A stretch of 64,000 nucleotides of DNA from the NCBI RefSeq assembly GCF_963675165.1, contig NC_087379.1, positions 7,036,339 to 7,100,338 on the forward strand. The letters are read 5' to 3'. The position numbers were made by a program, and so were the translations under genes. Shown here one piece after another: positions 18,164 to 64,000 of the stretch (positions are counted from its first letter, which is position 1; each line of letters begins with the position of its first letter). This DNA is from Halichondria panicea (Eukaryota; Porifera; Demospongiae; Suberitida; Halichondriidae). Under the pieces are notes generated by a model, which had not been told where the DNA came from, ran no database searches, and worked only from the letters and a program-made list of their open reading frames with translations.

Positions 18164-18253
18164 ATGGACATACACAGTGCTGCCCTCATTGGTGACTTGA
18201 GTGCTTTAAAAGATGCCATCAAGAGAGGAAAGGATGTCAACAGTGTGAATAAG
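18164..18253 (+). CDS. Copy A ankyrin N-cap exon
   Basis: Encodes MDIHSAALIGDLSALKDAIK plus ten residues, a capping half-repeat (xAAxxGDLxxLKxAIxRGxDVN). The donor is AAG|GTAAGC. Copies B and C have the same exon at 35344-35433 and 60088-60174; that of C is one codon shorter. Confidence 0.85.
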
Positions 18254-21200
18254 GTAAGCTGGTTTGTGGGTATGTAGAGCTGAAGCTGTGAAAGTCTGTT
18301 TTTGCTACTGTCATGCTAATTAATAATAATATACGAATGTACGATATCCCTTGATTCCATGCTTTAGTCTTGTCCCCAAATATTGTCTGTCTATCTCAAA
18401 TGAGAGGTAAGGTCATCGGTTACCATACAGCCGTATTTCAGGCTACATAATTTATAGTAATGAGGGAGCAAACCACTTCAGAACCATACTGTGGTGATAG
18501 ATAGTTGATGCATGTGCTCTGTCACCAGAATAACTGTGGACATGGAAAATTGAATTTGGTGCGACTATTATTTTTGGTCGTGTGTAGATTTTAATCTGCT
18601 GTCGCTCAACTACGAGCTAGCTTGCTGAAAGGTTAGAGTTAGTGTTATGTACTTTCGTGCGTGGGCTAAGTCACTACTGAGCCAATATATCCCATGTGGC
18701 ACTCGTGCATGTGTCACAACTATAACATAAAGTTTTCTAATAACATAGCCGGCATTATATAGATAGTTGCATTTTCATTTTTCGTGTCCAACCTCCTCTG
18801 TAGTTTTATATAGTAGCTGGACGAGCAAGAGTTAGCTAGCTACAGATCTACCGACAGTTAGTGTTCCTACGATGGCCGAGAAGAGTCACCTGCATCCGCC
18901 TACCACCACAATTAACTGTGCACGCTTAAAACCAATGTCAATCTGTGCAAGGTCAAAGGTCAACGAATAATGTCTGCATTCTAATTAACGCAACGTATTA
19001 CTTTTGTTGAAGTGACCATTGATGAGGTGGGTTGGTCCCAGAGGAGGTTGGACACGATTACGTACACCACTTTTTTTGCTGAGCTGACACAAAAATTGGC
19101 AATGAGTTCTATGTAAACTTCTAGCTGATGTTGCACGGTCATTGGAGACTGAAGGCAAACTTTATGTGCCTCTCTGGCTTCTTTTGATATAAAACTTTCA
19201 TTAACCAACCCGATCCCCTCTATTCTGACGAGCATACAGTGTTTTCTAGATTCTTGTCAGCCAGTACAGTGCAAGCTGCATACAGCACCGCTGAACTATA
19301 CCGTACCCTATAGTCTAGCTAATCTTGGTCCAGGCAGATGGACTACAGACACAGCTAGTCCGGTGTTACAAGTCAGCAAAGCAAGAGTATCCATAACTTT
19401 TTTATTACAGTGTTATTCGGTATCTATGGTAACTTTAAGCAGAGACCTTAGGAATGTCACATGATTGATGACGCGTGGCCAACCTCCTCTGGGTTGGTCC
19501 TACTATACTATCCTATAGTGATTCAACACTCTTCAAGAGTAGCTCTAGAACTAAATCCAACCTACCTGCACTGTGCATCGATGTCCATTTCAACAAATTA
19601 ATACGTTGCGTTAATTAGAATGCAGACAACCTTGTGCAGACTGACCTGAAAATTTATTCTTTGTTCCTTTACTTTATTTATGTTTTGTCAATATTTATGA
19701 TGCTCTCACTCTTGTAGGATGGGCGGACTCCACTCTATTGGGCAGCCAGCTATGGTCACACTGACTGTGTTAAAAAGCTGCTCTCCTCAGGAGCTGTAGT
19801 GGACCTGGCTGACATGGTGAGTATCTGATACTAAACTGATGTGTCTATAGTACAGTGGCCCTGAGGTACACACATAGTAGGCTCGAGGCTACAGCAATTC
19901 TCTACATCAATTCAACTGAGGTCAGCTCCATTGAACTGAGGCTATGGCAATTCACTACTTTTGTAAGAAAATGACTAGGGGTCTTTAATATTACAAATTA
20001 AATCAGAAATAAGTCTCCAAGCAAGTTTGTGAAGAACTAAGGGGGTGGATTAGTGTAACGGAATAGTTACCTATAGGCTAGCTAATGACTCTATATACCG
20101 TTGAGGTCTGTAGCCTCTGCTTTAGCCATGACACAGACAGACAGAGTGTGATTTTCTATTTAAAACACACCTGATATAATTATTTCTAGGGAGTTGAATT
20201 GACGTAGAGAATTGTCGTAGCCTCGAGCCTACAATGTGTGTACCTCAGGGCCACCGTACTATAGGCAGCATGTTCGTGACCATGCATGTACTTACAATTA
20301 TGGACGTTGCCGGCATTTTGAATTAAAATTAACCTTATTATGTTTTGCCTATAAGATGTACTTATCTTGCTTATTAATTTTGTGTTTAAGTTGATAAACT
20401 GGGCTACATACATTTTCTTGCATGTTGTACTCTATTACCGATTAAAATCATAGACTATAATTATAGTGATACATTATACAGTATATACTAGCCTCGTTCT
20501 CAGGCCGAGGTGTCTCTAAAATAACGCTAGATTGCCATGCAACTAGGCCTGGGGAAGATTGCATATGGGCGTGGTTTCAATTTGTTTAGATCCAACAAAT
20601 TTCAATGATTTTTCCGTAAAAGCTGCCGTAATCACAAAAATAGCTCCGTGTTACAAAGCTAACCTAGCTAACTAGCTAGCTAGCTATTAGATCTAGGTGG
20701 TAGCTATCAAGTTGTGTCAAACAAGAGGCCCCCCTCAATGAGCGTCAGGTCCAAGCTGTCAACTCCAGTGTGAAGGAAGGGACATTTTGTGTGGTTCCCT
20801 ACTGTGCTACCAGTTGCTGCAGACAATGAACTTGGAAGCCATTAGCTCGATCTACCTGGACATATAGCATAGGTGTATTTTGTGTTGCTAGGGTTATAAA
20901 CTAGTTATGACACGTGCACTCGGGATGCATGGTGTATATTGCACTCAGCCCTCGGGCCAATATCATATTTCTTTGTCATTTCTCTTAAACAATAATTATA
21001 TCAGATACAATCTATCCCAGGCCTAGTTGGCGACCTAGCATTATTTTTGAGACAACTCTGCCTGGGAACGAGGCTAAGTATATACATGCAGTTGTAGATG
21101 TACTGTACAATGTATTATGAACTTACGTGTGCTGACAATTACATTTCCCTGTGGATTTTAGTGCTTTAAACTGACGTACTAGCCGGTTTATTTACATGTA

Positions 21201-23657
21201 CTGTACTAGCTGGCTTAATACGTATGACTGTTGTGCTTGTGTTCTCACTCTAGGATGTGGTTGGAAATGTAGAGCAGTGAATGTCTGTATTGTTCAATGT
21301 ACATTCATATTGTGTTATCACTGTCTCCACTCTTGCAGGATGGGGACACTCCACTCATGAGGGCAGCCAATGGAGGGTACACTGACTGTGTTAAAAAACT
21401 GCTCTCCTCAGGAGCCGTTGTGGACCTGGCTAACAAGGTGAGTATCTGATACTAAACTGATGCGTCTATAGTACAGTGGCCCTGAGGTACACACATAGTA
21501 GGCTCGAGGTTACGGCAATTCTCTACGTCAATTCAACTGGGGTCAGCTCCATTGAACTGAGCAATTCACTACTTTTATAAGAAGATGTCTAATATATTAC
21601 AAAATCAGATATGAGTCTCCAAGCATCTCTAAGCAAGTTTGTGAAGAACTAAGGGGGTGGATTAGTGCTAACGGAATAGTTACCTATAGGCTAGCTAATG
21701 ACTCTATATACCGTTGAGGTCTGTAGCCTCTGCTTTAGCCATGACACAGACAGACAGAGTATGATTTTCTATTTAAAACACACCTGACATAATTATTTCT
21801 AGGGAGTTGAATTGATGTAGAGAATTGCCATAGCCTCGAGCCTACTATGTGTGTACCTCAGGGCCTCCGTACTATAGGCAGCATGTTCGTGACCATGCAT
21901 GTACGTACAATTATGGACGTAGCCGGCATTTAGAATTAAAATTAACCTTATTATGTTTTGCCTATAAGATGTACTTATCTTGCTTATTAATTTTGTGTTT
22001 AAGTTGATAAACTGGGCTACATACATTTTCTTGCATGTTGTACTCTATTACCGATTAAAATCATAGACTATAATTATAGTGATACATTATACAGTATATA
22101 CTAGCCTCGTTCCCAGGCCGAGGTGTCTCTAAAATAACGCTAGATCGCCATGCAACTAGGCCTGGGGAAGATTGCATATGGGCGTGGTTTCAATTTGTTC
22201 AGATCCAACAAATTTCAATGATTTTTCCGTAAAAGCTGCCGTAATCACAAAAATAGCTCCGTGTTACAAAGCTAACCTAGCTAACTAGCTAGCTAGCTAT
22301 TAGATCTAGGTGGTAGCTATCAAGTTGTGTCAAACAAGAGGCCCCCCTCAATGAGCGTCAGGTCCAAGCTGTCAACTCCAGTGTGAAGGAAGGGACATTT
22401 TGTGTGGTTCCCTACTGTGCTACCAGTTGCTGCAGACAATGAACTTGGAAGCCATTAGCTCGATCTACCTGGACATATAGCATAGGTGTATTTTGTGTTG
22501 CTAGGGTTATAAACTAGTTATGACACGTGCACTCGGGATGCATGGTGTATATTGCACTCAGCCCTTGGGCCAATATCATATTTCTTTGTCATTTCTCTTA
22601 AACAATAATTATATCAGATACAATCTATCCCAGGCCTAGTTGGCGACCTAGCATTATTTTTGAGACAACTCTGCCTGGGAACGAGGCTAAGTATATACAT
22701 GCAGTTGTAGATGTACTGTACAATGTATTATGAACTTACGTGTGCTGACAATTACATTTCCCTGTGGATTGTAGTGCTTTAAACTGACGTACTAGCCGGT
22801 TTATTTACATGTACTGTACTAGCTGGCTTAATACGTATGACTGTTGTGCTTGTGTTCTCACTCTAGGATGTGGTTGGAAATGTAGAGCAGTGAATGTCTG
22901 TATTGTTCAATGTACATTCATATTGTGTTGTCACTGTCTCCACTCTTGCAGGATGGGGACACTCCACTCATGAGGGCAGCCTTCTGGGAACACGAAGATA
23001 CTGTGAAGGAGCTTCTCTCATCAGGGGCTTCCCCTCTCTGCACTAATAATGTGAGCACATGTACTTTTAGAGTACATAGTTGCGTAGTTATACTTAACAA
23101 ACAGCTTTACATGTACTGTACACCTATACCTCTTACAGTAGTTAATGACTGAACAGAGCTGTCATTTGTACCTAAACAGATATACCCAACCTCTTAATAT
23201 GCAATTATCGTTGCCAGTATTGCTCTGTCAGAAAAGTACATGTCATACGCATTAGACCACTTTACCTCTTACAATGTACGTCTCATCCCTTCATATGATC
23301 ATCATCACAGGATGGACAGACTGCTCTGATGGTGGCCAAGAGATCACAATTCTCTAACCCTTCAGTAATACAGTTGCTTGAGGAAGCTGCTGAATCACAT
23401 GTGAGTCCATACCTCAATAATGCACACACTGCATGATCATGATGGTGTTTTAGTTTATTGTGCCGAATAATTAAATAGTGCATACATTATTATATGTACA
23501 TCGAATAAACTGTATGTCCTTTCTTTTACGAGTATTTTGCTATTTGGATAATTAAGCTCTAAATACTGTCCATTTAATTGCAATGGAGTGCAAACTAGTA
23601 CAGTTCCAATATTACACACACCTAAACAAGCATGAATACCATTACATGTGCCCCCCC

Positions 23658-23706
<49 letters not shown>

Positions 23707-26700
23707 GCGCGCGCGCACACACACACACACACTACTATCTATTTATTTTGACTAATGCCTTGTGCTAATTCTAAGAACCAAAATTAGAGGTTAATGATTG
23801 TTTTGTGCTTGCCACCTAGAAGAACCACATAGACCCATCCCCATTATCAGATACTACCACCACAAAACCTAGCCCAGACAATACAGGCCTGTACCTTATA
23901 AATTAAGCCTCCCTCAAGGTCAGATTTAGTTTACACAAGTACATAGCCATGCACAAGCTAAGTTAAAGTATTACAGCAGCCAATATCAAGTCTAAGATAA
24001 GTTCTATACTTTATGTCAGCATTACAATGTACCTCAAATGTGAATATAGCTTACAATCAGCATGGCCCCAAGTGAATAGCTTCCAATAATTATTCAGTAT
24101 ACTAGTTGTTCTGAATGCAACAGATGAATGGGGAGGGTTGGTGCACCGTTAAAGACTCTTTAACCCATCATTCTCGACTCTCAAGGTTGGGCATCTGTTT
24201 GCCTTTTCTACCTGTACGATTTTGTGCTGTTTGCTCTTTTGTTCTCCTTTTTTCTTTTGCTTGCCTAACTAGATAGGATAATACAAGGTATCAAGGATCC
24301 ACCACTATAATATTAGAACATCAGATGCCAACCTTTTAAAGATTAATTTAAGTGAGCATTCCGTTTGAGCTATAGTAACGCTAACAGTTGACACAATTTC
24401 TCCCACACAAATGATACTTTTGTATACCCTCAAACACACACACACACACACACTCAGTTATGTCTGCAGTCTGTTCCAGTCCTACCCAAGAACTGGACTG
24501 TCGTCACTGACACAGAAACGTGAGTGACTATTGTACAGTTTAGTCACTAGCTTTTATGAATGTGAGTCAACTTTAGGAAGAAGCCAGTCTACCAGAACAA
24601 GGCAGCAGGGGAAACCCTATCCACACCACCTGGATGTAAGTGTTGTGCTTGTGCTGTATCTAGCACATGGTTCTGTGTGTTTTACCTCCTGTGTACATGT
24701 AGATCCCCTGCACCAAACCTCCGCATACCCTGATGTCACTTTCTACGACATGCCTCAAGAGAAGGAGTTCACCTCCAGTGGTGGCCACGCTGACTTTGAC
24801 AATGGAGTGCAAGTGACTGTTTCAGCTAATGCTGTCCCAGCAGGGACCTCTGTGAGCATTAGTGTCCAACCCAGCCTTGCTTCAAATGACGTGTTTGTGA
24901 TGCCTGAGGGCATTCAGTCTGCCAGTCCGTCCTACTTGATCTCTGGTGAAGGTCTAAACGGAGAGGTGACCCTGAGCATGGAGCATCATGTACGCGTGTC
25001 CACCCAACAAGAAGCTGATGACCTCCTCTTTCTCCAAGCTGACTCGTCTCCCAAGAGATCTGGATCAAAGAGTATATACCAGTACCAGGTACAAGAGGGA
25101 GGGTCGAAGGCAGAGTTCACTCCTGGTGGGAACACTGGGAGACTGACCAGACGTTTGTCAAAGAAGAAGTTTTTCAAAGTTGGGGCTCGAATTAAGAAAT
25201 GGTTTCGAGGTGAGTGTATAAGGAATGTGTTTGTAGTGTGAGTGACATGCTTTTGTTGCAGGTTCATCCCAACTTGCTGCCAGCCAGCCTGATGACCCCC
25301 CAGAGCCTGAGAGTCCACCTAACCTCTACACTGTCAGAGTCTACCGGTCTCCGCCGCACACAACTGAGGACAGAATGGCTCTTGTCATTGTCAGCTACTT
25401 CCACCGGCTGTTTTTCGATGTACGTACATTGCAGAGTAAAGTTTTGTGATTCGTTTAGCACTGTACATAAATAACTGTTTTCCCATTATAGTTCTTGCAG
25501 AGGTTTGAGGTTGTCGTCATTCCCCGAGAGTATCCACACTTGTCAAGTAGCCCTGCTGATAAGACAATCAAACAACCTCTTTGCTTTGTCCAAGTTGATG
25601 CAGTACTGGAGCTAGTCTGTGACCCAGCCTGGAGGAGTGTGCCTGACCAGAGAATGGTGAGTGCTTTCAATAGTTATAGAAAAAAAACCGTTATATCGTA
25701 AGTGACTTTTCCGCACTTTTTTGTGTCTTCTATTAATTAATTTTTGCCGTGTTTACAGATTTCCCAAGATGAAGTAGACTTGCCAGTGATTGGTAAGTTC
25801 TCGCCAGAGGAGCTTCAGTGTTACCCACCCAGGATAGTGTGTCGGTTCTTCCCTGAGCAAGGAGCTGTCTCCTGCACCACATGCAATCTCTCACTGCATG
25901 GCTTTGACAAGCCAGTCAGTGTGGACATGGCACTGCTCACTCCTCAGAGATCAGTGGACACTAAACAACTCAAGGTGTTTCACTAAATCTCTGTTAAAGT
26001 CAATAATTATAATTATGAATGTTAGATACACTTCACTTGTGCCACATCAACCCAATGTTCTGCATCATCCTACACTTGTAAATTTTGGCTAATGAATGTC
26101 CGTAATGTAGTATGTTGCTTCCATAAGACCCACGTCTGTACTGTGTGTACTGCATGTGGACATGTGGACGTTCTCAATTCGTTATAATGCATGTACCGTA
26201 TAGCAGGTTATTTTCGTACGGTAGAAGTTTTCGTATTTTTCGTATTGTATACATAATCAACATTATCATTGGAAAATTAAAACTGCGCTACCGCGATAGG
26301 TTCAACGTCACTATCCTGAGCTGTACGAGTATTTAGAATATGAAATATTTGATTGGGCAGTTCATACGAACATTTACCAGTATGTATGTGATTGTAGGAA
26401 GCCACTGAAGTACTGAGGAGAACAGTTGGTGAGATGACCACCTCACAGCTTGGCTCTACTGTGGAGACTGTACTGTCACTAATGGAAAAAATGACAACTG
26501 CACTTCAGTGAGATGTCTAGTATTTTAATGGTAGCACTTTATTTACAATATCTCCCACCTCAGGTCATCTTCTCTGAGTGAGCTGACAGCCTACACTGAC
26601 TCCATACGGACAGAGATAAAGGCAGTCCTTGTAGTGACCAGGAGGGTTGTCCAGGAGTGCACAGTACAGAGCATCAGTGAGAACATGGGAGCCAGTCTCT

Positions 26701-29700
26701 CTAAGATGGAGACTTTATCTCACCAGCTTTGTCATGTGACCAAGGTCAAACTCAGATACTGTCTAGGTGAGAACGTGTGTTTATGATATCAAGTGTTAGC
26801 TCTCATTCTCAATGGTACAGACCAGTCAGAGGAGACAGCTGCTCTTGTTGACCTGGTGGAGAATGGAGCTAATCTGTTGAGAGCTGTAGACTGTCTACTC
26901 AGGGACATCCACACACTCAGTGGAGTCAGTGGTGAGTGTAGATTGTCAGAGTCTGTGTATCCAGTATCTACCTACCGTATAGCGGGTATATTTCGAGGGT
27001 ATAAATTTTCGCGGAAATGCCTTTAGAAATTAATGTTTTCGCGGATTTGATTTTCGTGGAATAGCAGCCTTTTTGCAACATGCATGCATACGATATTAAA
27101 TTTGCGGTACATGCTTAATCCATGACAACCACGAACATGTATACCCTCTATACGGTATTATGTTTTGATTTTAGATCAATGATACTCTGCTGCTCAACTG
27201 CAACCCCCCTCCCTCCGTTTCTTTCAGCTTCCATAACATGGCAGTTACAGTAGGATACCATGTTTGAATTTTAAATTCCAAGAGGGGGTAAACCAAATCC
27301 AAAGGAGGGTGGCAAAAGCCTCCCTAATTTCCCCCTGCCAATATTCACGTACAGTCTTTTGTCGAAATTTGCTGTTTTTTTTCCTCCCAAAACTTATAGC
27401 CAAAGAATAATTATTTATATCTGGAGGCATAAGTGTTCTATGTACTGCAGATAATTCACATATCCATTATAATGATGTCTCCAACATTGCCACTACAATG
27501 TGGAAGCTGCTTTGGTGTTATGGTAATTGTTCACTCCACTAATCAATGTATAATTATAGGACCATCCGCTAAACGAGTCACTCTTCAAGAACTAGTAGAG
27601 CAATACAATCTGACTGACGAGCAACTCAACAGTGAAATAGAAGACTCTGAAACTCCCGAAATGGCCTCATGTTTTGATGATGTGGACCTTTATTCGAGTT
27701 CAATGGGGCTAGGTATTGCTGATCAAGCCGATGTGAAGAGGTTGTACCATAGTGAAGGTACTCGAGCAGCCATGATGAAGTGTTTGCAAATCTGGAAAGA
27801 ACGTAATCCTTTTCAAGCAACTTACAGAGCTCTACTGGATATCGCACTGAGATTGGGGAAAGGAGACACAGCTCATCAAATCTGTCAGCAATTGATCCAA
27901 CGTAAGTACATGTACACATGTTACTACATGTCAGGTGACAAGCCCCCTCTACTAAGTAGCTATTCAAAATTTGGCTCAAGATTGAAATCGCAACAGAGAA
28001 GGCATTTGCCACAATCCCTATGATTGTGTGTATATACCATCATGCGTGCTTGTACACCTCCCTCCTAGACTGCACTGTTGAGTACTAGTGTATGAGAACC
28101 TCACCAAACTGATATACTGATTGTCTCCATATTGTACAGGAGGTGTGAGAGGTGTGGTCACTGGCTCGGACTGTATACAGGTATCCTGCATGTACTGCTT
28201 GTATACAGTTTAGCTGTACAATAGATACTGAGTGTTCAACTTAAGTTAATTCAACTAGCGAGTATTTACATTTTGCTGTATACCGTATAGCGGGTAATTT
28301 TCGTGGGGTAAAAAATTCGTTCAATTAAAGAAACGGTGATTTGCGTGAGTAAAATTTCGTTTAGTCTCGTTGCTTGCCTGCATTCCTACGTTTGGGTAAG
28401 CCACGCCTACGTTAAAATTTCGTGGAGGCCAGCTTGCCCATGACAATAACGAATATTTACCCCTCAAAAATTACCCGCTATATATACGGTACATGCACTG
28501 AAACACAGTGATTCTCACAGTCTAATTGTACTTGCTTCCTCAGGTTGAGGCTGGCGTTGCACGGAAGGTTCCGACTGTAGCCAGGACTGTGGTGGACATT
28601 GATGTGCGTTTATTTGTTACGTACTTACATTGTAATTATAGCTTTAAGTTAGCACAATTAACCGTGTATATACACTGCTAAATGTTGCTTGGCTTACCTA
28701 CATTGTATGCATATCCATGTTACAGTACTGTATGTTTGCTTAATTATCTTCTGTAGGAAGCCACTGAAGTACTGAGGACAACAGTTGGTGAGATGACCAC
28801 CTCACAGCTTGGCTCTACTTTGGAGACTGTACTGTCACTAATGGAGAAAATTACAACTGCACTTCAGTGAGATGTCTACTATTTTAATGGTAGCACTGTA
28901 TTCATAATATCTCCCACCTCAGGTCATCTTCTCTGAGTGAGCTGACAGGCCACACTGACTCCATACGGACAAATGTTACGTCCGTTCGTCAACTGGCCGG
29001 GAAGATTGTCAAGGAGTGCAACATTGGAGCCAGTCTCTCTAAGATGGAGACTTTATCTCATCAGCTTGGACGGTTGGCCGAGGACAAACTCGAAGACTGT
29101 AAAGGTGAGAATACATTGTACCAGGGTTTAGGGCAGGGGATTAAACTTCCCCTAAAAACATTTTGTGCAATAATGGCATCAGGGTTTCATACAGGATTTT
29201 TAGCTGGGAGAGGGAAACGTTTAATTAAGGGGGGTCTGAGGGTCCTCTCCCGGAAAAATTTTTGAGGAATGGTTATCTGAGGTGCAATTTGGGTTTTTGT
29301 GTGCTTCAAACCATACATTTTACTATAGCCTATAATAAGATTGTAGATATTTTAATGGAGAAAAGTCATACATTTTTATTATGACATCATTAATTTTCAG
29401 ATTTCTAGGGGGGGGGGATTTTGGCTGGGGGTAGGAAATCTCAGGCCCCCCCCCCTCTGTATGAAACCCTGCATTGGCATCATCAACAAAAACCAGTTAC
29501 AAGTAGACTCTACTGTATTAAACACTGTGATATGTACACTATTATCTCTGCCCTACTATAATGCATATAATGGACTCAGGGTTTCATCTAGTGGGGGGGG
29601 GGGGGGGAGGGGGGGTCAGGGGTGAACAATCACACTAATATGCTCAGCTTCCTCCTTGTAGAATAATGACATCATCACATTGGTAATGTAGGTACATGTA

Positions 29701-35124: not shown

Positions 35125-35343
35125 TTTGTCTACACGTACGTACATATACATAATTATGATTATTACGATTGTGCGTACCATCATTCTTTTTGTACTTGAG
35201 ATTAACCTTGAATTTATACATGTACTCACTTAATTGTTGCATGTTTGAGCTGAAGCTGTGAAAGTGTAATTATTATTGCATATTGATCAATGAATGTCAG
35301 TAAGGAGGGTCCAAACAAAGGGGTGTGGCTACTATCCAAGAAA
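35125..35343. promoter_or_regulatory. Intergenic spacer A-B with conserved promoter block
   Basis: 219 bp between the stop of A and the start of B, nearly the same as the 224-bp spacer between B and C. Its last 55 bp are the shared proximal block. Confidence 0.6.
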
Positions 35344-46999: not shown

Positions 47000-47060
<61 letters not shown>

Positions 47061-50000: not shown

Positions 50001-53000
50001 AGGCCTGGCAGAGAGGATAGACATTGAACACCCTCTACTCAACAACGAGATTGAGACAACAGAGTTCGTATATTTGGCTGCATATTTCGACAACGTGATA
50101 TTGTACTCTCAGATGTTGGGACTCAATCGTTCTCAGCAAGCTAGTGTGAGGCAGCTTCTAGGTTCATATGACATGCAAACGGCCATGATGGAGTGCTTGT
50201 CCCTATGGCAGAGGAGTAACCCAGCTGCTGCAACATATAGAACTCTTCTGAAACTACTCGTAAGAATGAAGAAACATGAAATTGCGAGTGATGTGTTCAA
50301 ACATTGCCTAGAGAATAGTAAACTAACATAGTACATGTGTAGCGTATTATTTGTTTTGTGATAGACCTTTTTTTTATCAGTTTGAATGCACGTAACATTA
50401 TTTTTGTAGTGTTTATTGTTTGGATGACAATGAATTGTTAGTCACATTGTTATTGTGGTCATGTACTGTCATGCTCCCTCATGATTGTTATGCCTTGATG
50501 CGTATGGTCCATGCAGGGGCACACAGTCATCTGTTTGTGTGTGCATGTGTGTGTGTGTATTCCAGCTGTAACTGTTCCTTCTATTAGCAGTATACAAGCG
50601 TCATATCACCTTCTAGGTAAAGGGTCCTTGAATAACATTGGTAAAGATCGCCAATGCTATTATTGCTAGTTACACAAATTGTGTAACTAGCAATAATAGC
50701 ATTGGCGATCTTTACCAAATCACCAAACCAGCAAAGAAGAGAAGAGACCAGAGGAGGCTGGAACCACTTGACCTTAGCTAATTAAGGTCACTAATTGGAT
50801 TTATCCAAACTTCTCTTGCAGACTACTTCAAGCCTAGTTTTTAGTGTCTATCAGTTTAAAACCTTATTTTTCAGGGGGGGTCAAATTTTATTTTCGCCAA
50901 TTTTGCTCAGAAGCAGAGATACAAGTCTCAAAGCCAGTATGCAGTGACCTCGAGAACAAGCCGCTCATGATATCGAGGCTAGTGCAAGAGCAAGACTTTT
51001 GATTGTATCTCTGCTTCTGAGCAAAATTGGCGAAAACATAATTTGACCCCCCCTAAAAAATAACGTTTTAAACTGATAGACACTAAAAACTAGGCTTGAA
51101 GTAGTCTGCAAGAGAGGTTTGGATAAATCCAATTAGTGACCTTAATTAGCTAAGGTCAAGTGCATGTTTAGTCTCGAATACCCGCCTCAACCTAAAAGCT
51201 TGAGTCTGGTCAAACCATAGATGTAGGAGAGAGGGATTGGAAACGGAAGTAGATTTCAATGTACTTCACATATGACCTCCATAAACATCCGCGCCTCGCT
51301 TAATGAGGGCTAAATCTATTCCCCAGGAACTTCGCGGGTAACTGAGATTATTGCAAATCTAGGATTTTATTAGCCTCGTTCCCAGGCCTTACTTTTTCTT
51401 GCTGTTGTCACTGTTCATCCATAAATCACTAGAAAGACATAGTGAGGCAGCAAAGAAAGAAATGGGCATACAGTTAAGAAAAAGTAAGGCCTGGTTTGGG
51501 AAATCGCGTGATCCACAAGGATTTTTATGAACGTGGGAGATATGTAGCCCACAATCGTGACGTAAGGTATTCTCCCACGCATTCAGAGTTAATAAGACTG
51601 TACATGTACTGAGACAACCACCAAGATGTGCTGCAAGTCAGATCAGAGAACCAGCGTGGCCAGCTCTGGTGGCAGTAGCTACCTGCTATATATGATAATG
51701 ATGACTAACTTAAGCTATCTTGATCTATACTAGCATGTAGAAAGACACAAGAAAAGGTAATAGTCTGATAGAATCTGAACACACAATCTAGACTAGTAGA
51801 TCATCTAAGGTATATAGCTAGCTATAGTGCTTGCAAACTTCCAGTTCCAAGTCCATGTCCAGCTTGCTGCAGGCAAAGTTTTATTAGTCATAGATATCTG
51901 TGTGGGCAGTCCAACATCTCTAGCTCAGCATGCCCACGCTCATTTTCACCCTTCTACCCTTCTACCCTCACGCGACTTCCCGATACAGGCTCTCCTTTTT
52001 CCTAACTCTACGTAGGGTTTCCACACAAAAATCTGATCTCTACAAATGGTGTTTTGAGTGATTGTGCATACAAAGCAACTAAAATAAAGCAGGCAGCCAC
52101 AATTTCGCGTTGAAATACCTTTTCTTTCTTGCACAATAGCACCCGTTAACTCTCACCACAACTATGCGCTTGCATGCAATATTTCCACTCTAAAGAAAGC
52201 ACACTTCAAAGTTAAATTTCAAAACTTTTGTTGAAGCATAGATAAAGGAATTTTGTGCTGCAATTCTACACTTCAAGGTAAGTAGTTTAGAGCAGAATTG
52301 AACAAATTGTATTTAGTTGTCAAAGCCTGGTGTATTTTTTACAACTACAACCAAAAATTGAAAATGTTGTTTTGATACTGTAAAAATAGAAGTGTCAGTG
52401 CATTTGCTTTCCTCACCATATTTTTATGAAGTAGGTTGGTGCATGTATCTATGATAATAATTAAAAGTAGAATCGTCCCATGTAACCACCAAACTACATC
52501 CGATGTATTTCTACTCCGTAACAACGTAACAAACATTACAAAATGTCAGTGATCATCATAATATGTATTATACACAGGCTGTTGAGTCAACAGAAGCCTT
52601 TAATGTCTGAAATGAAAATTTCAGCCACCCAAGGTGATAATTTAATATAATATTATAGAAACTTTGTTGTTCTTCACTGCAGTGCGTGCGTGGCCTTGTT
52701 AACAATAACAAGTGAACAATTTGGTGGAACTTGTCCAAAAAAGACTGCTCATGTTGGAAAAAGTAGACGCTGAAGAAAGCTATAATTATAATCATTGTCA
52801 ATTTATAGTATAATGGAACAGTTATAAGCTTAAGACTATCAACTTTCCAACAATGCATTACGATGAGAACAGAAAGTGTCTATTTTGACCTGACTATTGT
52901 GACTTTTTACTGGAGACAAAAAATCAGAATAATTATTGTGAACAAAAACGCAATTTTAAGTCAGAAGAGACTACATAGAAATGTGTGTAGTATACACATG

Positions 53001-59000: not shown

Positions 59001-59863
59001 CTATAACAATTAAATACAGGGAATTCAAGTCCCCAAACCATTGAGCTTTTAGAAAATCATTGACAACGATGCTTATTTATAGCAAGAGCACTTATCTACT
59101 CTTGGTCACGGCCATTAAACTGCAACCCCCCCCCCCCCCATCCGTTAATTAATGGTTCGGGGACTCTTTTAGCTGCCATGCAAAACTTGAATTCCCTGTA
59201 TTGAAAGTCTCTTTAAAAACTCATCAAAATTGGATAAGTTACTGCCATTGACAGTTGTTCAACCCTCCCTCTGTTTAATCAATGGTTTGGGACTCTTTTA
59301 GCTGCCATATAACTTGAATCCTTAGGTATTTAATTTTTAGTGTATAGAAAATAGCTAATGCTTGCTCTTCATATCTGTTGTTCCATATTCCGTTCCATTC
59401 CGCATTCCTCCTTTTACAACATGCCTTTCCACTTCCTCCTATTGTGTACTACCAGCCATATACAGTGTATTGTACATGTACTGAGTCTATTTGTTCACAT
59501 TACACGTACTTAGGTCTCCAGTGTGTGGGCGTATCATGCTCTAACCATTTCCTCTCTCCTGCAGGTAACGCTGGCTACAGTGTGCTGGTGAGCTGCAGTG
59601 AGAAGATAGTCCAGTCACTCTCTGAGGACCCGAAGGCCTTGGCCCTCCACCTCCTGTCAGCTGGGCTCATCACTGTGTCCATTCTTGAGAAAACCAACGA
59701 GTATGTGAATGAGACCAAGAGAGAGAAGGCCACCAGACTGTACACTGCCCTGCTGGGTGTGGTCAAACACCACCCCCACAAGTACCACGAGTTTGTCTCC
59801 ACTCTCAGACTCAACCCACTACACACTGACTTGGTCACACAATTAGATAGCAAGTACACGTAG
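35344..59863 (+). CDS. Array copy B: ankyrin-ZU5-Death-CARD protein
   Basis: Exons by phase: ankyrin 35344-35433, 37553-37651, 39208-39306, 40833-40931, 42491-42589, 43754-43852, 45025-45123, 45930-46019; linker and ZU5 47075-47124, 47182-47240, 47302-47811, 47864-48021; then 48094-48258, 48362-48577; helical 48994-49103, 49166-49368, 49396-49533; Death 50003-50317; CARD 59565-59863. It has six 99-nt ankyrin cassettes against three in copy A, only one helical block, and a different Death exon. If the donor AATA|GTAAAC at 50317 is not used, the protein ends with the Death domain at the TAG at 50329. The intron before the CARD exon holds more than 9 kb of nested transposons. No disabling change was seen in the listed exons. 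Confidence 0.68.
37553..37651 (+). CDS. Ankyrin cassette exon B2
   Basis: 99 nt, phase 0: YGDTPLIEAARKGNTDCVRE then [13 protein letters not shown]. Confidence 0.88.
39208..39306 (+). CDS. Ankyrin cassette exon B3
   Basis: 99 nt, phase 0: [20 protein letters not shown] then [13 protein letters not shown]. Differs from C4 only at repeat positions 1 and 3 at the protein level. Confidence 0.88.
40833..40931 (+). CDS. Ankyrin cassette exon B4
   Basis: 99 nt, phase 0: [20 protein letters not shown] then [13 protein letters not shown]. Confidence 0.88.
42491..42589 (+). CDS. Ankyrin cassette exon B5
   Basis: 99 nt, phase 0: DGNTPLMVAVFGGHTDCIKK then [13 protein letters not shown]. The following intron is almost identical to that after B6. 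Confidence 0.88.
42590..45024. repeat. Two nearly identical tandem exon-plus-intron units
   Basis: Introns 42590-43753 (1164 nt) and 43853-45024 (1172 nt) differ by four substitutions and one 8-nt indel by my count. They are the youngest duplication in the array. Confidence 0.92.
43754..43852 (+). CDS. Ankyrin cassette exon B6
   Basis: 99 nt, phase 0: DGNTPLMMAASRGHTDCIKK then [13 protein letters not shown]. Five bases differ from B5, all replacements. Confidence 0.88.
45025..45123 (+). CDS. Ankyrin cassette exon B7
   Basis: 99 nt, phase 0: YGDTPLMTAASRGHTDCIKK then [13 protein letters not shown]. Three bases differ from B6, all replacements. Confidence 0.88.
45135..45929. other. Composite intron before exon B8
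   Basis: The ankyrin-type intron is cut short near 45,235 and joined to sequence like the intron before A5. An inserted piece at about 45,306-45,800 contains the AATTAATTAGAGG repeat inverted relative to 34,010-34,160. No gene supported. Confidence 0.5.
45930..46019 (+). CDS. Ankyrin C-cap exon B8
   Basis: 90 nt, phase 0: DGQTALMRAKRSRLSNPSTI then QLLEEAAESH. Confidence 0.85.
47003..47058. repeat. CA microsatellite, expanded in copy B
   Basis: About 28 or more CA units just before the exon at 47075. The same site in copy A (24432-24453) has about ten, showing rapid repeat growth between paralogues. Confidence 0.85.
47075..48577 (+). CDS. ZU5 and following exons of copy B
   Basis: Six exons (47075-47124, 47182-47240, 47302-47811, 47864-48021, 48094-48258, 48362-48577) matching copy A almost base for base. 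Protein differences seen include an added Glu (QYQEVQ), S to K in VSIKVQ and E to D in PRDYPH. Confidence 0.82.
48994..49533 (+). CDS. Helical exons of copy B
   Basis: Exons 48994-49103, 49166-49368 and 49396-49533, equivalent to block 1 of copy A. The same 27-nt gap (49369-49395) separates the last two. Confidence 0.6.
50003..50331 (+). CDS. Death domain exon of copy B (DD2)
   Basis: Phase 1 start; encodes GLAERIDIEHPLLNNEIETT, FVYLAAYFDNVILYSQMLGL, RSQQASVRQLLGSYDMQTAM, ECLSLWQRSN, AATYRTLLKLLVRMKKHEIA and SDVFKHCLENS. This is a six-helix Death-fold pattern with the W in LSLWQRS. It ends in TAG at 50329-50331, or splices at 50317 in phase 1 to the CARD exon. Confidence 0.82.
50638..50718. 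repeat. Perfect 81-nt palindrome, copy B only
   Basis: 40-nt arms (50638-50677 and 50679-50718) are exact reverse complements around one A. The same place in copy A (about 31615-31660) holds only one arm. Confidence 0.95.
50765..51162. mobile_element. Fold-back element with arms of about 170 bp
   Basis: Starts CACTTGACCTTAGCTAATTA and ends with its mirror image TAATTAGCTAAGGTCAAGTG. The arms are nearly complementary over about 170 bp. Absent from copy A. Confidence 0.88.
52014..54180. mobile_element. 2.17-kb element with very long inverted repeats and a 9-bp target duplication
   Basis: Starts AGGGTTTCCAC and ends GTGGAAACAACCCT. Flanked by ACTCTACGT on both sides (52005-52013, 54181-54189); uninterrupted copies at about 32745 and 57003 have the site once. 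Arms of about 700 bp. The centre carries a small minus-strand ORF with a coiled-coil pattern (53012-53242). A 9-bp duplication suggests a Mutator-like element, non-autonomous. Confidence 0.88.
53366..53634. mobile_element. 269-bp MITE nested in one arm of the 2.17-kb element
   Basis: Ends GGCCACTCCAAGTGATACTC and the mirror image finishing CACTTGGAGTGGCC, flanked by TTA. The opposite arm (around 52510) reads through without it, giving an internal empty site. TTA targets are typical of PIF/Harbinger MITEs. Confidence 0.9.
54321..55707. other. Internal region of the outer element
   Basis: About 1.4 kb without a recognised gene. Short open stretches only. It may be a remnant of the autonomous part. 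Confidence 0.35.
55708..57139. mobile_element. TAGCCTCG element with a further insertion
   Basis: Ends TAGCCTCGTTCCCAGGCC and GCCTGTGTAGAGGCTA, target duplication CTCTCCTAC on both sides. Relative to 32112-32874 it has an extra 670 bp or so (about 56,220-56,895) bounded by weak inverted ends. Confidence 0.88.
57208..57298 (+). pseudogene. Death-domain C-terminal fragment, copy B
   Basis: Equivalent to 31690-31787 but with a deletion and an added T, so ATYRALVKLLLRRKYDISSK is followed by a frameshift. Confidence 0.65.
57555..58579 (+). pseudogene. Partial PA2G4/EBP1-like pseudogene in copy B
   Basis: Same four pieces as in copy A (57555-57610, 57825-57917, 58249-58306, 58506-58579) without the 763-bp transposon. 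The same frame breaks are shared, so decay predates the A/B duplication. Confidence 0.75.
58580..59564. other. Intron before the copy B CARD exon
   Basis: Closely similar to 33841-34825. No gene supported. Confidence 0.5.
59565..59863 (+). CDS. CARD-like terminal exon of copy B
   Basis: 99 residues, apparently identical in protein to the copy A exon. Phase 1 acceptor CTCCTGCAG. Confidence 0.72.
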
Positions 59864-60033
59864 TTTGTCTACACGTACGTACATATACATAATTTATGAT
59901 TATTACGATTGTGCGTACCATCATTCTTTTTGTACTTGAGATTGACCTTGAATTTATACATGTACTCACTTAATTGTTGCATGTTTGAGCTGAAGCTGTG
60001 AAAGTGTAATTATTATTGCATATTAATCAAACA

Positions 60034-60087
60034 TGAATGTCAGTAAGGAGGGGTCCAAACAAAGGGGCGTGGCTACTATCCAAGAAA
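60034..60087 (+). promoter_or_regulatory. Conserved proximal promoter block of copy C
   Basis: Third copy of the block seen before A and B. Confidence 0.55.
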
Positions 60088-63000
60088 ATGGACGTACACA
60101 ATGCTGCCAGTGTTGGTGATTTGAGTGCTTTAAAATATGCCATCAAGAGAGGAGAGGATGTCAACAGTGTGAAGGTAAGCTGGTTTGTGGGTATGTAGAG
60201 TTGAAGCTGTGAAAGTCTGTTTTTGCTACTGTCATGCTAATTAATAATAATATACGAATGTACGATATCCCTTGATTCCATGCTTTAGTCTTGTCCCCAA
60301 ATATTGTCTGTCTACCTCAAATGAGAGGTAAGGTCATCGGTCACCATACAGCTGTATTTCAGGCTACATAATTTATAGTAATGAGGGAGCAAACCACTTC
60401 AGAACCATACTGTGGTGATAGATAGTTGATGCATGTGCTCTGTCACCAGAATAACTGTAGACATGGAAAATTGAATTTGGTGCGACTATTATTTTTGGTC
60501 GTGTGTAGATTTTAATCTGCTGTCGCTCAACTACGAGCTAGCTTGCTGAAAGGTTAGAGTTAGTGTTATGTACTTTTGTGCGTGGATGGATGATGTCAGA
60601 TGCAACCACTCTTTATTATGCTAATCCCTTTCCTTTATGGTCTATCACACAGATGTGTTATCTTGTATGCTCTAACTCTTGTAGGATGGGCAGACTCCAC
60701 TCTGTTGGGCAGCCTATAAAGGGCACACTGACTGTGTTAAAAAACTGCTCTCCTCAGGAGCCGTGGTGGACCTGGCTGACAAGGTTAGTGTCTGATACTA
60801 AACTGATGTGTTTATATAGGCAGCATGTTTGTGACCATCACATCATTAAGAATTATTTACATGTACCGTACTCACCTGAAAATACACCCCCTTCGAATTT
60901 ACGCCCCCCTAGCCAGAGCAGGAAATGTATTGCAGAGGTATTTTCTACCTCAATAATACGCCCCCTAACCCCATCTAATTATGGCAGGTTCAATAATAGC
61001 TCCTGTTAGATCTAAACATAGTTTTATCAGAGGAGGTTGGCCACGTGTCATCATTTATGTGACGTCTCTGCTCACGTTACCATAGATACTGAACAACTAT
61101 AAAGAAAATTATGGCTACTCTTGTTTTGCTGAGCTTATAACACCTGACTAGCTGTGTATGTTGTCTGGTTGGACCAGGATTAGCTAGACTATAGGGTAGA
61201 GTGTAGTTCAGCGGTGCTGTATGCAGCTTGCACTGTACTGGCTGGCAAGAATCTAGTAAACACTGTATGCACTGATAACTCGTCAGAATGGAGGGGATCG
61301 CTGGGGATCGGGTTGGTTAATGAAAGCTCAAAGTAGCCAGAGTTGTGTAAATTTTGCCTTCAGTCTCCAATGACCGTGCAACACCAGCTAGAAGTTTACA
61401 TAGAAATCATTGTCAATAAGCTGTGCCCACTCAGCAAAAAGTGGTGCACGTGATCGTGTCCAACCTCCTCTGTAGTTTTATAGTAGCTGGACGAGCAAGA
61501 GTTAGCTAGCTACAGATCTACCGACAGTTAGTGTGGCCGAGAAGAGTCACCCACCTCCACCTACCACCACGATTAACCGCGTGCACTTAAAACTAATGTC
61601 AATCTGTGCAAGGTCAAAGGTAAACAAGTAATGTCTGCATTCTAACTAAGGCAACGTATTAATTACTTTAGTTGAAGTGACCATTGATGAGGTGGGTTGG
61701 TCCTACTATACTATCCTATAGTGATTCTAGACACTCTTCAAGAGTAGCTCTAGGACCAAATCCAACCTACCTGCACTGTGCATCGATGGCCATTTCAGCA
61801 AAATTAAATACGTTGCGTTATATAAGTAGTCGTTGACCTTGTGCAGACTGACCTGAACACTTGTTGGCGGTTCTTTGTTCCTTTACTTTATTTATGGTCT
61901 ATCACACGATGTGTTGTAACTGCATGCTCTCACTCTTGTAGAATGGGGACACTCCACTCTATTGGGCAGCCAGGAGAGGGAACACTGACTGTGTTATGGA
62001 GCTGCTCTCCTCAGGAGCCATGGTAGACCTGGCTAACAAAGTGAGTACCTGATACTAAACTGATGTGTCTATAGTACGGTGGTCCTGAGGTACACACATA
62101 GTAGGCTCGAGGTTACGGCAATTCTCTACGTCAATTCAACTGAGGTCAGCTCCATTGAACTGAGGCTATGGCAATTCACTAATTAATAAGAAGAGGTTTT
62201 CAATATTGCAAAATTAGAAATGAGTGTCCAATTATCTCCAAACAAGTTTGTGAAGAACTAAGGTGGTGGATTAGTGCTAACGGAATAGTTACCTATAGGC
62301 TAGCTAATGACTCTATATACCGTTGAGGTCTGTAGCCTCTGCTTTAGCCATGACACAGACAGACAGAGTATGATTTTCTATTTAAAACACACCTGATATA
62401 ATTATTTCTAGGGAGTTAAATTGACGTAGAGAATTGCCGTAGCCTCGAGCCTACTATGTGTGTACCTCAGGGCCACCGTACTATAGGCAGCATGTTCGTG
62501 ACCATGCATGTACATACAATTATGGACGTTGCCGGCATTTTGAATTAAAATTAACCTTATTATGTTTTGCCTATAAGATATACTTATCTTGCTTGTGTTT
62601 AAGTTGATAAACTGGGCTACATACATTTTCTTGCATGTTGTACTCTATTACCGATTAAAATCATAGACTATAATTATAGTGATACATTGTACAGTATATA
62701 CTAGCCTCGTTCTCAGGCCGAGGTGTCTCTAAAATAACGCTAGATCGCCATGCAACTAGGCCTAGGGAAGATTGCATATGGGCGTGGTTTCAATTTGTTC
62801 AGATCCAACAAATTTTGATGATTTTTCCGTAAAAGCTGCCGTAATCACAAAAATAGCTCCATGTTACAAAGCTAACCTAGCTAACTAGCTAGCTATAGGT
62901 ATTAGATCTAGGTGGTAGCTATCAAGTTGTGTCAAACAAGAGGCCCCCCTCAATGAGCGTCAGGTCCAAGCTGTCAACTCCAGTGTGAAGGAAGGGACAT

Positions 63001-64000
63001 TTTGTGTGGTTCCCTACTGTGCTACCAGTTGCTGCAGACAATGAACTTGGAAGCCATTAGCTCGATCTATCTGGACATATAGCATAGGTGTATTTTGTGT
63101 TGCTAGGGTTATAAACTAGTTATGACACGTTCACTCGGGATGCATGGTGTATATTGCACTCAGCCCTCAGGCCAATATCATATTCTTTGTCATTTCTCTA
63201 GCTGTATTTTCATTATGGACATAATTTTACAATATACCAGATACAATCTATCCCAGGCCTAGTTGGTGACCTAGCATTATTTTAGAGACAACTCTGCCTG
63301 GGAACGAGGCTAAGTATATACATGCAGTTGTAGATGTACTGTACAATGTATTATGAACTTACGTGTGCTGACAATTATATTTCCTTGTGGATTGTATAGT
63401 GCTTTAAACTGACGTACTAGCCGGTTTATTTACATGTACTGTACTAGCTGGCTTAATATGTATGACTGTTGTGCTTGTGTTCTCACTCTAGGATGTGGTT
63501 GGAAATGTAGAGCAGTGAATGTCTGTATTGTTCAATGTACATTCATATTGTGTTGTCACTGTCTCTACTCTTGCAGTATGGGAACACTCCACTCATGAAG
63601 GCAGCCAGTGAAGGTCACACTGACTGTATTAGGGAGCTGCTCTCCTCAGGAGCCGTGGTGGACCTGGCTGACAAGGTGAGTATCTGATACTAAACTGATG
63701 TGTCTATATAGACAGCATGTTCGTGACCATCACATCATTAGGAATTATTTACATGTACCGTACTCACCCGAAAATATACACCCCCTTTGAATTTACGCCC
63801 CCCACTAGCCAGAGCAGGAAATGTATTGCAGAGGTATTTTCTATCTCAATAATACGCCCCCTAACCCCATCTAATTATGGCAGGTTCAATAATAGCTCCT
63901 GTTAGATCTAAACATAGTTTTATCAGAGGAGGTTGGCCACGTGTCATCATTTATGTGACGTCTCTGCTCACGTTACCATAGATACTGAACAACTATAAAG
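60088..64000 (+). CDS. Array copy C, 5' part: ankyrin cap and three cassettes
   Basis: Exons 60088-60174 ([20 protein letters not shown] plus nine residues), 60685-60783 ([20 protein letters not shown]...), 61942-62040 ([20 protein letters not shown]...) and 63577-63675 ([20 protein letters not shown]...). All three cassettes are 99 nt and phase 0. The cap exon is one codon shorter than in A and B. The first cassette uses donor AAG|GTTAGT instead of GTGAGT. The gene continues beyond the window, so ZU5, Death and CARD parts cannot be assessed. Confidence 0.75.
60784..61941. other. Intron of copy C with transposon remnants
   Basis: Contains an element with CAGAGGAGGTTGG ends at about 61031-61475 and a shortened form of the copy A first-intron repeat at about 61,610-61,830. 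The segment 60,815-61,110 recurs almost unchanged at 63,705-64,000. Confidence 0.55.

What the first reader, a model, noticed from the sequence alone, without database searches (positions are those of the whole stretch)
18164..63675. Ankyrin exon cassettes vary far more than the introns around them
Twelve 99-nt phase-0 ankyrin exons in copies A, B and C lie in introns that are close to identical. In the youngest pair (B5/B6) I count four substitutions and one 8-nt indel in about 1165 intron bases, but five substitutions in 99 exon bases, all five replacing amino acids. B6 to B7 adds three exon changes, again all replacements. B3 versus C4 and A3 versus B3 look similar. Neutral duplication predicts the reverse. 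This suggests diversifying selection on the exons, or homogenisation of the introns by gene conversion.
Basis: seen in the sequence. Interest (0 to 1): 0.93.

Follow-up and report, generated by a model that had tools for sequence, protein, structure and literature searches.

The report
Hypervariable ankyrin exons in uniform introns
In many copies of a large gene family, ankyrin exons differ at a handful of codons that probably face a binding partner while the introns beside them are almost identical, a pattern that suggests a natural library of binders kept diverse by selection.

Summary
All twelve 99-nt ankyrin exons exist. The youngest pair is exact: 4 substitutions plus one 8-nt indel in 1,164 intron bases against 5 replacement changes in 99 exon bases. 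In the window, exon exceeds intron divergence in 36 of 36 comparable pairs, but whole-exon pN exceeds pS in only 15 of 36. Among 115 exons from the window and 22 further loci, 34 disjoint pairs outside array Y give intron 1.2%, exon synonymous 8.4%, replacement 13.1%. Change piles up in six codons (pN 0.41); five are intermediate; 22 others have pN 0.025. Four of the six vary between repeats of a designed ankyrin binder. The first-repeat exon behaves alike; the ZU5 exon and a C-terminal helical exon do not. Of 98 non-Y pairs with near-identical introns, 94 differ at 6-20 exon bases, so exon distance does not track intron distance. Best reading: a ligand-binding repeat repertoire kept diverse by selection while recombination homogenises the rest, as in fungal NLR repeats, here in ANK-ZU5-Death-like genes.

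The parts
18164..18253 (+). Copy A first-repeat (N-cap) ankyrin exon, starts with ATG
   Evidence: in five copies the exon differs at 9-11/81 in all 10 pairs against 1-5/~248 in the downstream intron; the 60 nt upstream differ at 1/59 to 6/56
19718..19816 (+). Copy A ankyrin exon A1 (99 nt)
21339..21437 (+). Copy A ankyrin exon A2; upstream intron and first 30 nt match A3, the rest is of the ordinary type (apparent hybrid)
22952..23050 (+). Copy A terminal-type ankyrin exon A3 (ends SGASPLCTNN)
23311..23433 (+). Copy A C-cap ankyrin exon (3' splice site not determined)
24528..25241 (+). Copy A open frame with ZU5 match (control, not hypervariable)
   Evidence: Pfam ZU5 E=0.0008, 20.1 bits against cut-off 21
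27433..28023 (+). Copy A open frame with weak Death-domain match
   Evidence: Pfam Death E=0.011, 16.2 bits against cut-off 22.6
34828..35124 (+). C-terminal helical exon with stop codon (5' splice site not determined), no family match; presumably the end of the copy A gene (control)
   Evidence: 1/294 different from 59567-59860, protein identical
35344..35433 (+). Copy B N-cap ankyrin exon
37553..37651 (+). Copy B ankyrin exon B1
39208..39306 (+). Copy B ankyrin exon B2 (reader B3)
40833..40931 (+). Copy B ankyrin exon B3
42491..42589 (+). Copy B ankyrin exon B4 (reader B5)
43754..43852 (+). Copy B ankyrin exon B5 (reader B6)
45025..45123 (+). Copy B ankyrin exon B6 (reader B7)
45930..46052 (+). 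Copy B C-cap ankyrin exon (3' splice site not determined)
47133..47843 (+). Copy B open frame with ZU5 match
   Evidence: Pfam ZU5 E=0.00047, 20.8 bits against cut-off 21
49903..50331 (+). Copy B open frame with weak Death-domain match
   Evidence: Pfam Death E=0.0011, 19.5 bits against cut-off 22.6
59567..59863 (+). Second copy of the C-terminal helical exon with stop codon, presumably the end of the copy B gene
60088..60174 (+). Copy C N-cap ankyrin exon
60685..60783 (+). Copy C ankyrin exon C1
61942..62040 (+). Copy C ankyrin exon C2
63577..63675 (+). Copy C ankyrin exon C3 (reader C4); further ankyrin exons follow beyond the window in L001

Best explanation
The window holds two apparently complete copies and the start of a third copy of a member of a large ANK-ZU5-Death-like gene family. 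Each 33-residue ankyrin repeat is one symmetric 99-nt phase-0 exon, so repeats can be added, lost or swapped without breaking the frame (read from the sequence). Recombination among these look-alike units (unequal crossing-over in introns, gene conversion, crossovers within exons) homogenises introns and framework codons (inferred from the pattern; one apparent within-exon breakpoint seen). Selection for new binding surfaces resists homogenisation at about six codons per repeat and in the first-repeat exon, so exon variants persist as a shared pool that is shuffled from unit to unit (inferred). The product is most likely an intracellular receptor or adaptor whose ankyrin array recognises variable ligands (pathogen, symbiont or self/non-self) and signals through a Death-type domain (inferred from architecture only).
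For: Exon > intron divergence in 36 of 36 comparable window pairs, and in 32 of 34 disjoint non-Y pairs, 1 lower and 1 tie, sign test p=8e-9. Pooled over those 34: intron 207/16,742 = 1.24%, pS 8.4%, pN 13.1%. Profile: intron bins 0.6-3.2% on both sides; exon nt 1-9 23%, 10-18 0.65%, 19-24 41%, 25-30 2%, 31-36 37%, 61-90 about 3%, 91-99 12%. Codons 1, 3, 7, 8, 11, 12: pN 0.409, pS 0.164; codons 18-20, 32, 33: pN 0.177, pS 0.104; 22 other codons: pN 0.025, pS 0.072. Count that needs no tree: extra alleles per site 2.58 at first/second bases of the six codons against 0.83 at 18 fourfold sites of other codons, Mann-Whitney p=1.5e-5, optimistic because the six codons were picked from the same data. 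81 distinct six-residue combinations among 89 unique non-terminal exons; divergence at the six codons 0.417 within and 0.436 between ten arrays. Of 98 non-Y pairs (not independent) whose flanks differ at 0-1 of ~500 bases, exon differences are 0 (2), 1 (1), 4 (1), the other 94 at 6-20. Same-gene controls: N-cap exon 9-11/81 in 10 of 10 pairs against 1-5/~248 in the downstream intron; C-terminal helical exon 1/294, protein identical; ZU5 cores of 12 copies pN 0-0.048, pS 0-0.225. In the alignment codons 1, 3, 11 and 12 are among the positions that differ between three DARPin R12 repeats; overlap of the six codons with the six library positions (recalled) is 4, p=0.005. 106 of 106 cassettes found by both flanks are 99 nt without stops.
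Against: Whole-exon pN > pS in only 15 of 36 window pairs. Synonymous divergence exceeds intron divergence, so part of the excess is age of the exon pool, not selection on each change. Gene conversion is inferred; no GENECONV-type test was run. Array Y: 6 of 8 disjoint pairs have zero exon and zero intron differences. Three of 34 non-Y pairs keep the exon nearly unchanged: K39208/K68925 (exon 0, intron 1/500), T4426/T5998 (0 and 0/500), E671/I619 (1 synonymous, 2/500). The 60 nt before the N-cap exon differ by 1/59 to 6/56, so the sharp boundary holds there only on the intron side. C-cap exons vary (8-16/81) but their flanks do too (4/248 to 26/197). Local homogenisation shows for loci D/E but hardly for E/M. 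Death and ZU5 matches lie below Pfam cut-offs; both structure models are of low confidence.
Confidence: 0.76

Rival explanations
1. Recent unit duplication followed only by rapid positive selection on new point mutations, without conversion or exchange.
For: The youngest window pairs carry replacement changes only: 5:0 and 3:0.
Against: Synonymous divergence 8.4% against 1.2% in introns. With near-identical introns, 94 of 98 non-Y pairs sit at 6-20 exon differences instead of forming a gradient. Some intron-identical pairs (0 of about 500) lie in arrays about 80 to 400 kb apart, one of them on opposite strands (G/H).
Confidence: 0.07
2. Homogenisation of introns alone: conversion tracts for mechanical reasons do not enter exons, and exons are simply old; no diversifying selection.
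For: Exon synonymous sites are also more divergent than introns.
Against: Within one exon, six codons have pN 0.41 while codons 4-6 and 9-10 lying between them show 2 synonymous differences over about 170 synonymous sites. Replacement exceeds synonymous change at the six codons (0.409 vs 0.164). The N-cap exon behaves alike, while ZU5 and the C-terminal helical exon of the same genes do not.
Confidence: 0.08
3. A targeted mutator or template-switch system diversifies ankyrin exons directly.
For: Sharp exon/intron boundary in the divergence profile; nearly fixed third bases at codon 1 (88 of 89 T) and codon 8 (87 of 89 G).
Against: Array Y copies exons unchanged in 6 of 8 disjoint pairs, but its introns are identical too, so this has little power. 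Third-base changes in minimal mutation trees number 14 to 24 of 74 against 13.9 expected, so no codon-position bias. Synonymous sites of codons 4-6 and 9-10 are not raised; no stops in 106 flank-defined cassettes.
Confidence: 0.06
4. Assembly or alignment artefact.
For: Highly repetitive loci are hard to assemble.
Against: Collapsing would make exons alike too. Length and frame are kept in 106 of 106 flank-defined cassettes, and the same codons vary in separate arrays while framework codons do not.
Confidence: 0.03

Closest known systems
Fungal NLR (STAND) proteins with WD40, TPR or ANK repeats (Podospora HNWD family; ANK gene Pa_3_8560)
   Same: Highly alike repeats, proposed concerted evolution, and positive selection at a few positions per repeat; for the ANK gene five positions, and with one exception the selected and polymorphic sites map to the concave surface of inner helices and the beta-hairpin region (PMC4986451, passages seen).
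   Different: No NACHT or NB-ARC match in the 8 window frames scanned; partners are ZU5 and weak Death matches. Here each repeat is its own exon, so introns give a neutral ruler.
Zebrafish NLR-B30.2 family
   Same: Multigene family in which gene conversion acts differently on different domains and the presumed recognition domain shows high dN/dS (PMC4852459, passages seen).
   Different: The variable part there is one B30.2 domain, not a row of repeat exons; different domains.
Snake three-finger toxin genes (ASSET: segment switching in exons)
   Same: Intron segments highly alike while some exon segments differ (PMC2474615, passages seen).
   Different: Secreted toxins with short segments replaced by unrelated ones; here change is codon-sized inside a constant framework.
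DARPin synthetic libraries
   Same: Constant ankyrin framework with a few randomised surface positions that form the binding site (PMC8683736, passages seen, which do not list the positions); codons 1, 3, 11 and 12 differ between DARPin R12 repeats.
   Different: Engineered; here codons 7 and 8 also vary, and codon 31 (library position 33) hardly does. The list of six library positions is recalled.
Ankyrin/UNC5-type ZU5-Death proteins
   Same: ANK plus ZU5 plus weak Death matches.
   Different: Classical ankyrins are few and conserved (recalled); here 41 ZU5 matches at E<=1e-15 (two of them look like halves at one place on C16) and at least 150 ankyrin exon matches in one genome, with variable surfaces.

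Membership tests
Ankyrin repeat (Pfam PF00023) | 33-residue repeat with G-x-TPL-x-x-AA-x-x-G-H core | tested here: met
   E=3.6e-30, 102.8 bits against cut-off 21.1 for three joined exon translations
ANK-ZU5-Death proteins | ZU5 domain | tested here: inconclusive
   E=0.0008 and 0.00047, 20.1 and 20.8 bits against cut-off 21
ANK-ZU5-Death proteins | Death domain | tested here: inconclusive
   E=0.011 and 0.0011, 16.2 and 19.5 bits against cut-off 22.6; low-confidence model (pLDDT 48) whose first PDB match is a FAS/FADD death-domain assembly at E=1.1, no match at E<=0.001
ANK-ZU5-Death proteins | Exons joined in one transcript | not testable with these tools
   no RNA data; gene order and splice sites only
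NLR / STAND receptors | NACHT or NB-ARC domain | tested here: inconclusive
   none at E<=0.1 in 8 window open frames scanned against Pfam; spliced proteins not available
Highly alike repeats under concerted evolution and diversifying selection (fungal NLR type) | Repeats alike except at a few positions with replacement excess | tested here: met
Highly alike repeats under concerted evolution and diversifying selection (fungal NLR type) | Variable positions on the binding surface | tested here: inconclusive
   4 of 6 coincide with positions that differ between DARPin R12 repeats; no structure of this ankyrin array was made
Highly alike repeats under concerted evolution and diversifying selection (fungal NLR type) | Exchange between repeats of different genes | tested here: inconclusive
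   indirect: introns identical over about 500 bases between separate arrays, exon distance equal within and between arrays, one apparent within-exon breakpoint; no formal conversion test
Highly alike repeats under concerted evolution and diversifying selection (fungal NLR type) | Repeat number polymorphism between individuals | not testable with these tools
   one assembly only; copies A and B of this genome have 3 and 6 of the 99-nt exons

The most novel reading that the evidence does not exclude
An animal carries a germline, exon-encoded library of natural ankyrin binders: at least 150 one-repeat exons with a shared framework and about six contact codons that combine almost freely, in a Death-type signalling family, acting as an innate or self/non-self recognition repertoire with perhaps individual-specific combinations.
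Probability: 0.42. Interest if true: 0.92.

Novelty: new variant of a known kind. Interest (0 to 1): 0.8.

Why it matters
It would show in what is probably an animal gene family the regime known from fungal NLR repeats, with each repeat isolated as an exon so that introns serve as an internal neutral ruler. That makes it possible to measure selection and recombination codon by codon, and to test whether an organism without adaptive immunity keeps a combinatorial germline library of intracellular binders. The six codons name the residues to test.

Tried and rejected
Uniform exon-wide hypermutation: rejected because synonymous sites in codons 4-6 and 9-10 stay low (2 differences over about 170 sites) between codons with about 40% replacement divergence.

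Codon-position-limited mutagenesis, suggested by nearly fixed third bases at codons 1 and 8: minimal mutation trees give 14 to 24 third-base changes of 74 against 13.9 expected, so not supported.

A CARD assignment for the C-terminal helical exon (34828-35121), my first guess by eye: no Pfam match listed up to E=10, no meaningful PDB sequence match (best E=0.12, a nitrile hydratase), low-confidence fold (pLDDT 60) with no PDB match at E<=0.001. I call it only a helical exon. It ends in a stop about 220 nt before the next ATG, so I read it as the end of the preceding gene.

Donor search for the B4/B5/B6 changes as single short conversion tracts: partial only. The first 21 nt of B6 are shared with one exon on C6, its first 9 nt also with B1; codons 8-13 of B5 with one exon of array E; no donor was found for the B4 tract among the 115 exons.

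Literature: ten searches; several listings were capped (for example 15 of 96, 15 of 30, 8 of 22, 8 of 27). Searches found 0 papers, one search found 1 and one search found 2, none on this family to judge from title and start of abstract. Only open-licence PMC papers are held. Four papers were opened, by found passages only (PMC4986451, PMC8683736, PMC4852459, PMC2474615); the others were seen as listings.
Full report
WHAT IS THERE. The window is G000:C3:7036339-7100338 in a 131 Mb genome of 39 contigs. The window carries two apparently complete copies and the start of a third copy of a gene whose ankyrin repeats are single exons of exactly 99 nt between AG and GT. Each copy begins with an ATG-bearing first-repeat exon at 18164, 35344 and 60088. 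Then come three 99-nt exons in copy A, six in copy B and three within the window in copy C. A last capping repeat, a ZU5 frame and a weak Death-domain frame follow in A and B. A helical exon ending in a stop lies about 220 nt before the next ATG, so I read it as the end of the preceding gene. No RNA evidence was available, so the joining of these exons is inferred.

Not all introns are alike. Of 66 window pairs 36 share at least one homologous 250-nt flank; in 36 of 36 of these the exon is more divergent than the intron, but pN exceeds pS in only 15. The introns before 42491 and before 43754 are also less alike (35 of 1,142 aligned, indels up to 321 nt).

A LARGER SAMPLE. The exon family has 150 scored matches out of 555 candidates in the genome, a lower bound, nearly all on C3 5.3-8.4 Mb and C6 1.6 Mb. 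I fetched 22 loci, which with the window gave 115 open 99-nt ankyrin exons; open frames were a condition of this list. Of 6,555 possible pairs 6,328 had full 250-nt flanks and 574 had both flanks homologous; from these 42 disjoint nearest-intron pairs were drawn, 8 of them in array Y. The 34 others pool to intron 207/16,742 (1.24%), pS 8.4%, pN 13.1%. The exon is higher in 32 of 34, with 1 lower and 1 tie. Three of the 34 keep the exon at 0 or 1 difference (K39208/K68925, T4426/T5998, E671/I619). Array Y behaves differently: blocks are copied with their exons, 6 ties and 2 higher of 8. The ten-unit array on C3 at 8.05 Mb shows the effect most plainly: unit spacing is 786 nt in nearly every step, and 29 of 99 exon columns vary over the ten units while few intron columns vary between the inner units.

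WHERE THE CHANGE SITS. Averaged over the 34 pairs, intron bins stay between 0.6% and 3.2% up to both splice sites, while the exon alternates between nearly frozen and strongly variable stretches. Six codons (1, 3, 7, 8, 11, 12) have pN 0.409 and pS 0.164. Five (18-20, 32, 33) are intermediate (pN 0.177, pS 0.104). The other 22 have pN 0.025 and pS 0.072; their synonymous differences are uneven, most of them in codons 13, 15, 16, 21, 26 and 27. A count that needs no tree gives 2.58 extra alleles per first or second base in the six codons against 0.83 per fourfold site of other codons (Mann-Whitney p=1.5e-5). The six codons were picked from the same data, so this p-value is optimistic; an outside yardstick is the DARPin comparison. 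In the alignment printed three DARPin R12 repeats differ at the equivalents of codons 1, 3, 11 and 12, among others. With the six library positions taken from recall, overlap is 4 of 6, p=0.005. Codons 7 and 8 are extra, and codon 31 (library position 33) hardly varies here.

CONTROLS IN THE SAME GENES. The N-cap exon differs at 9-11 of 81 nt in all 10 pairs of five copies while its downstream intron differs at 1-5 of about 248; the 60 nt upstream of its ATG differ at 1/59 to 6/56, so on that side the contrast is weaker. C-cap exons of three copies differ at 8, 14 and 16 of 81 nt, but their flanks differ too (4/248 to 26/197), so they are only weak support. The ZU5 core of 12 copies (7 fetched) shows pN 0-0.048 and pS 0-0.225; pN is below pS in 60 of 66 pairs, above it in 5 (all with pS 0 and 2 replacements) and equal in 1 (counted). 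The helical C-terminal exon differs at 1 of 294 with the same protein, flanks 5/596 and 2/195. The effect is therefore a property of the ankyrin exons, not of exons in general in these genes.

SELECTION AND RECOMBINATION TOGETHER. If exons had diverged by point mutation since each duplication, pairs with near-identical introns should form a gradient from zero. Instead, of 98 non-Y pairs with 0-1 flank differences in about 500 bases, exon differences are 0 in 2, 1 in 1, 4 in 1 and 6-20 in 94; these pairs share units and are not independent. In array Y the 27 such pairs show 0 in 21, 1 in 2 and 5 in 4. Divergence at the six codons is alike within and between ten arrays of one intron type, 0.417 over 134 pairs and 0.436 over 1,244. 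Of 89 unique non-terminal exons 81 have distinct six-residue combinations; association with z above 3 was seen for 10 of 91 codon pairs, strongest between neighbours 19 and 20. Exon synonymous sites are more divergent than introns. Together these suggest that exon variants are an old, shuffled pool while introns have coalesced recently. One apparent shuffling event is visible: exons 21339 and 22952 agree over the upstream intron (2/300) and the first 30 exon bases, then differ at 36 of 69. Local homogenisation has partial support: between loci D and E the ankyrin introns differ by a median 0.4% (13 pairs, 0 to 4.6%), while two ZU5-side stretches differ by 2.4% and 9.2%. For E and M the contrast is absent on one side (1.2% over 3 pairs against 0.8% and 2.8%).

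FUNCTION. All 106 cassettes found by both flanks are 99 nt without a stop; decayed cassettes that lost these flanks would have been missed. Ten further acceptor-like sites lacked the donor pattern; two of these are open ankyrin exons with another donor context and eight are not ankyrin. The reading frame is thus maintained. Variable surface plus Death-type partner suggests recognition and signalling, but this is inferred from architecture; Death and ZU5 matches lie under the Pfam cut-offs, and both structure models were poor.

COMPARISON. The nearest precedent is the fungal NLR repeat regime, where ANK repeats show positive selection mostly on the concave surface and possible concerted evolution (PMC4986451, passages). 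Zebrafish NLR-B30.2 genes combine domain-specific conversion with selection (PMC4852459, passages). Three-finger toxin genes show variable exon segments in similar introns (PMC2474615, passages). I saw no paper on such an ankyrin-exon family in the rows listed, which cover open-licence papers only and were capped in part.

VERDICT. A new variant of a known kind, of high interest because introns give an internal ruler and because the six codons make a recognition hypothesis directly testable.

Noticed in passing
window 20192-20267 and 19842-19917: A 76-nt segment occurs in both orientations in the intron after exon A1; the same segment appears in the opposite orientation near many other ankyrin exons of the family. 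It may be part of an inverted-repeat mobile element.
   Followed up: partly
L011-L012 (G000:C3:5417000-5436999): Multi-exon blocks are repeated (for example exon spacings of 3,880 nt) with introns and exons mostly unchanged, unlike the other arrays.
   Followed up: partly
ankyrin exon codons 1 and 8, all arrays sampled: Third bases are nearly fixed (88 of 89 T; 87 of 89 G) although the first two bases vary widely; minimal mutation trees over the six variable codons show no overall bias.
   Followed up: yes
16402-17883: Open frame with a histidine phosphatase (branch 2) match, E=1.1e-21, directly upstream of copy A.
   Followed up: no
G000:C6:6265631-6265957 and G000:C27:1703-2029: Two ZU5 matches with the same score, both with one in-frame TGA; C27 may be an uncollapsed haplotype or duplicate of the C6 locus.
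   Followed up: no
G000:C2:7.74-7.86 Mb: A second, distant cluster of 14 matches to the C-terminal helical exon (42-49% identity) on contig C2, perhaps another tandem gene family.
   Followed up: no
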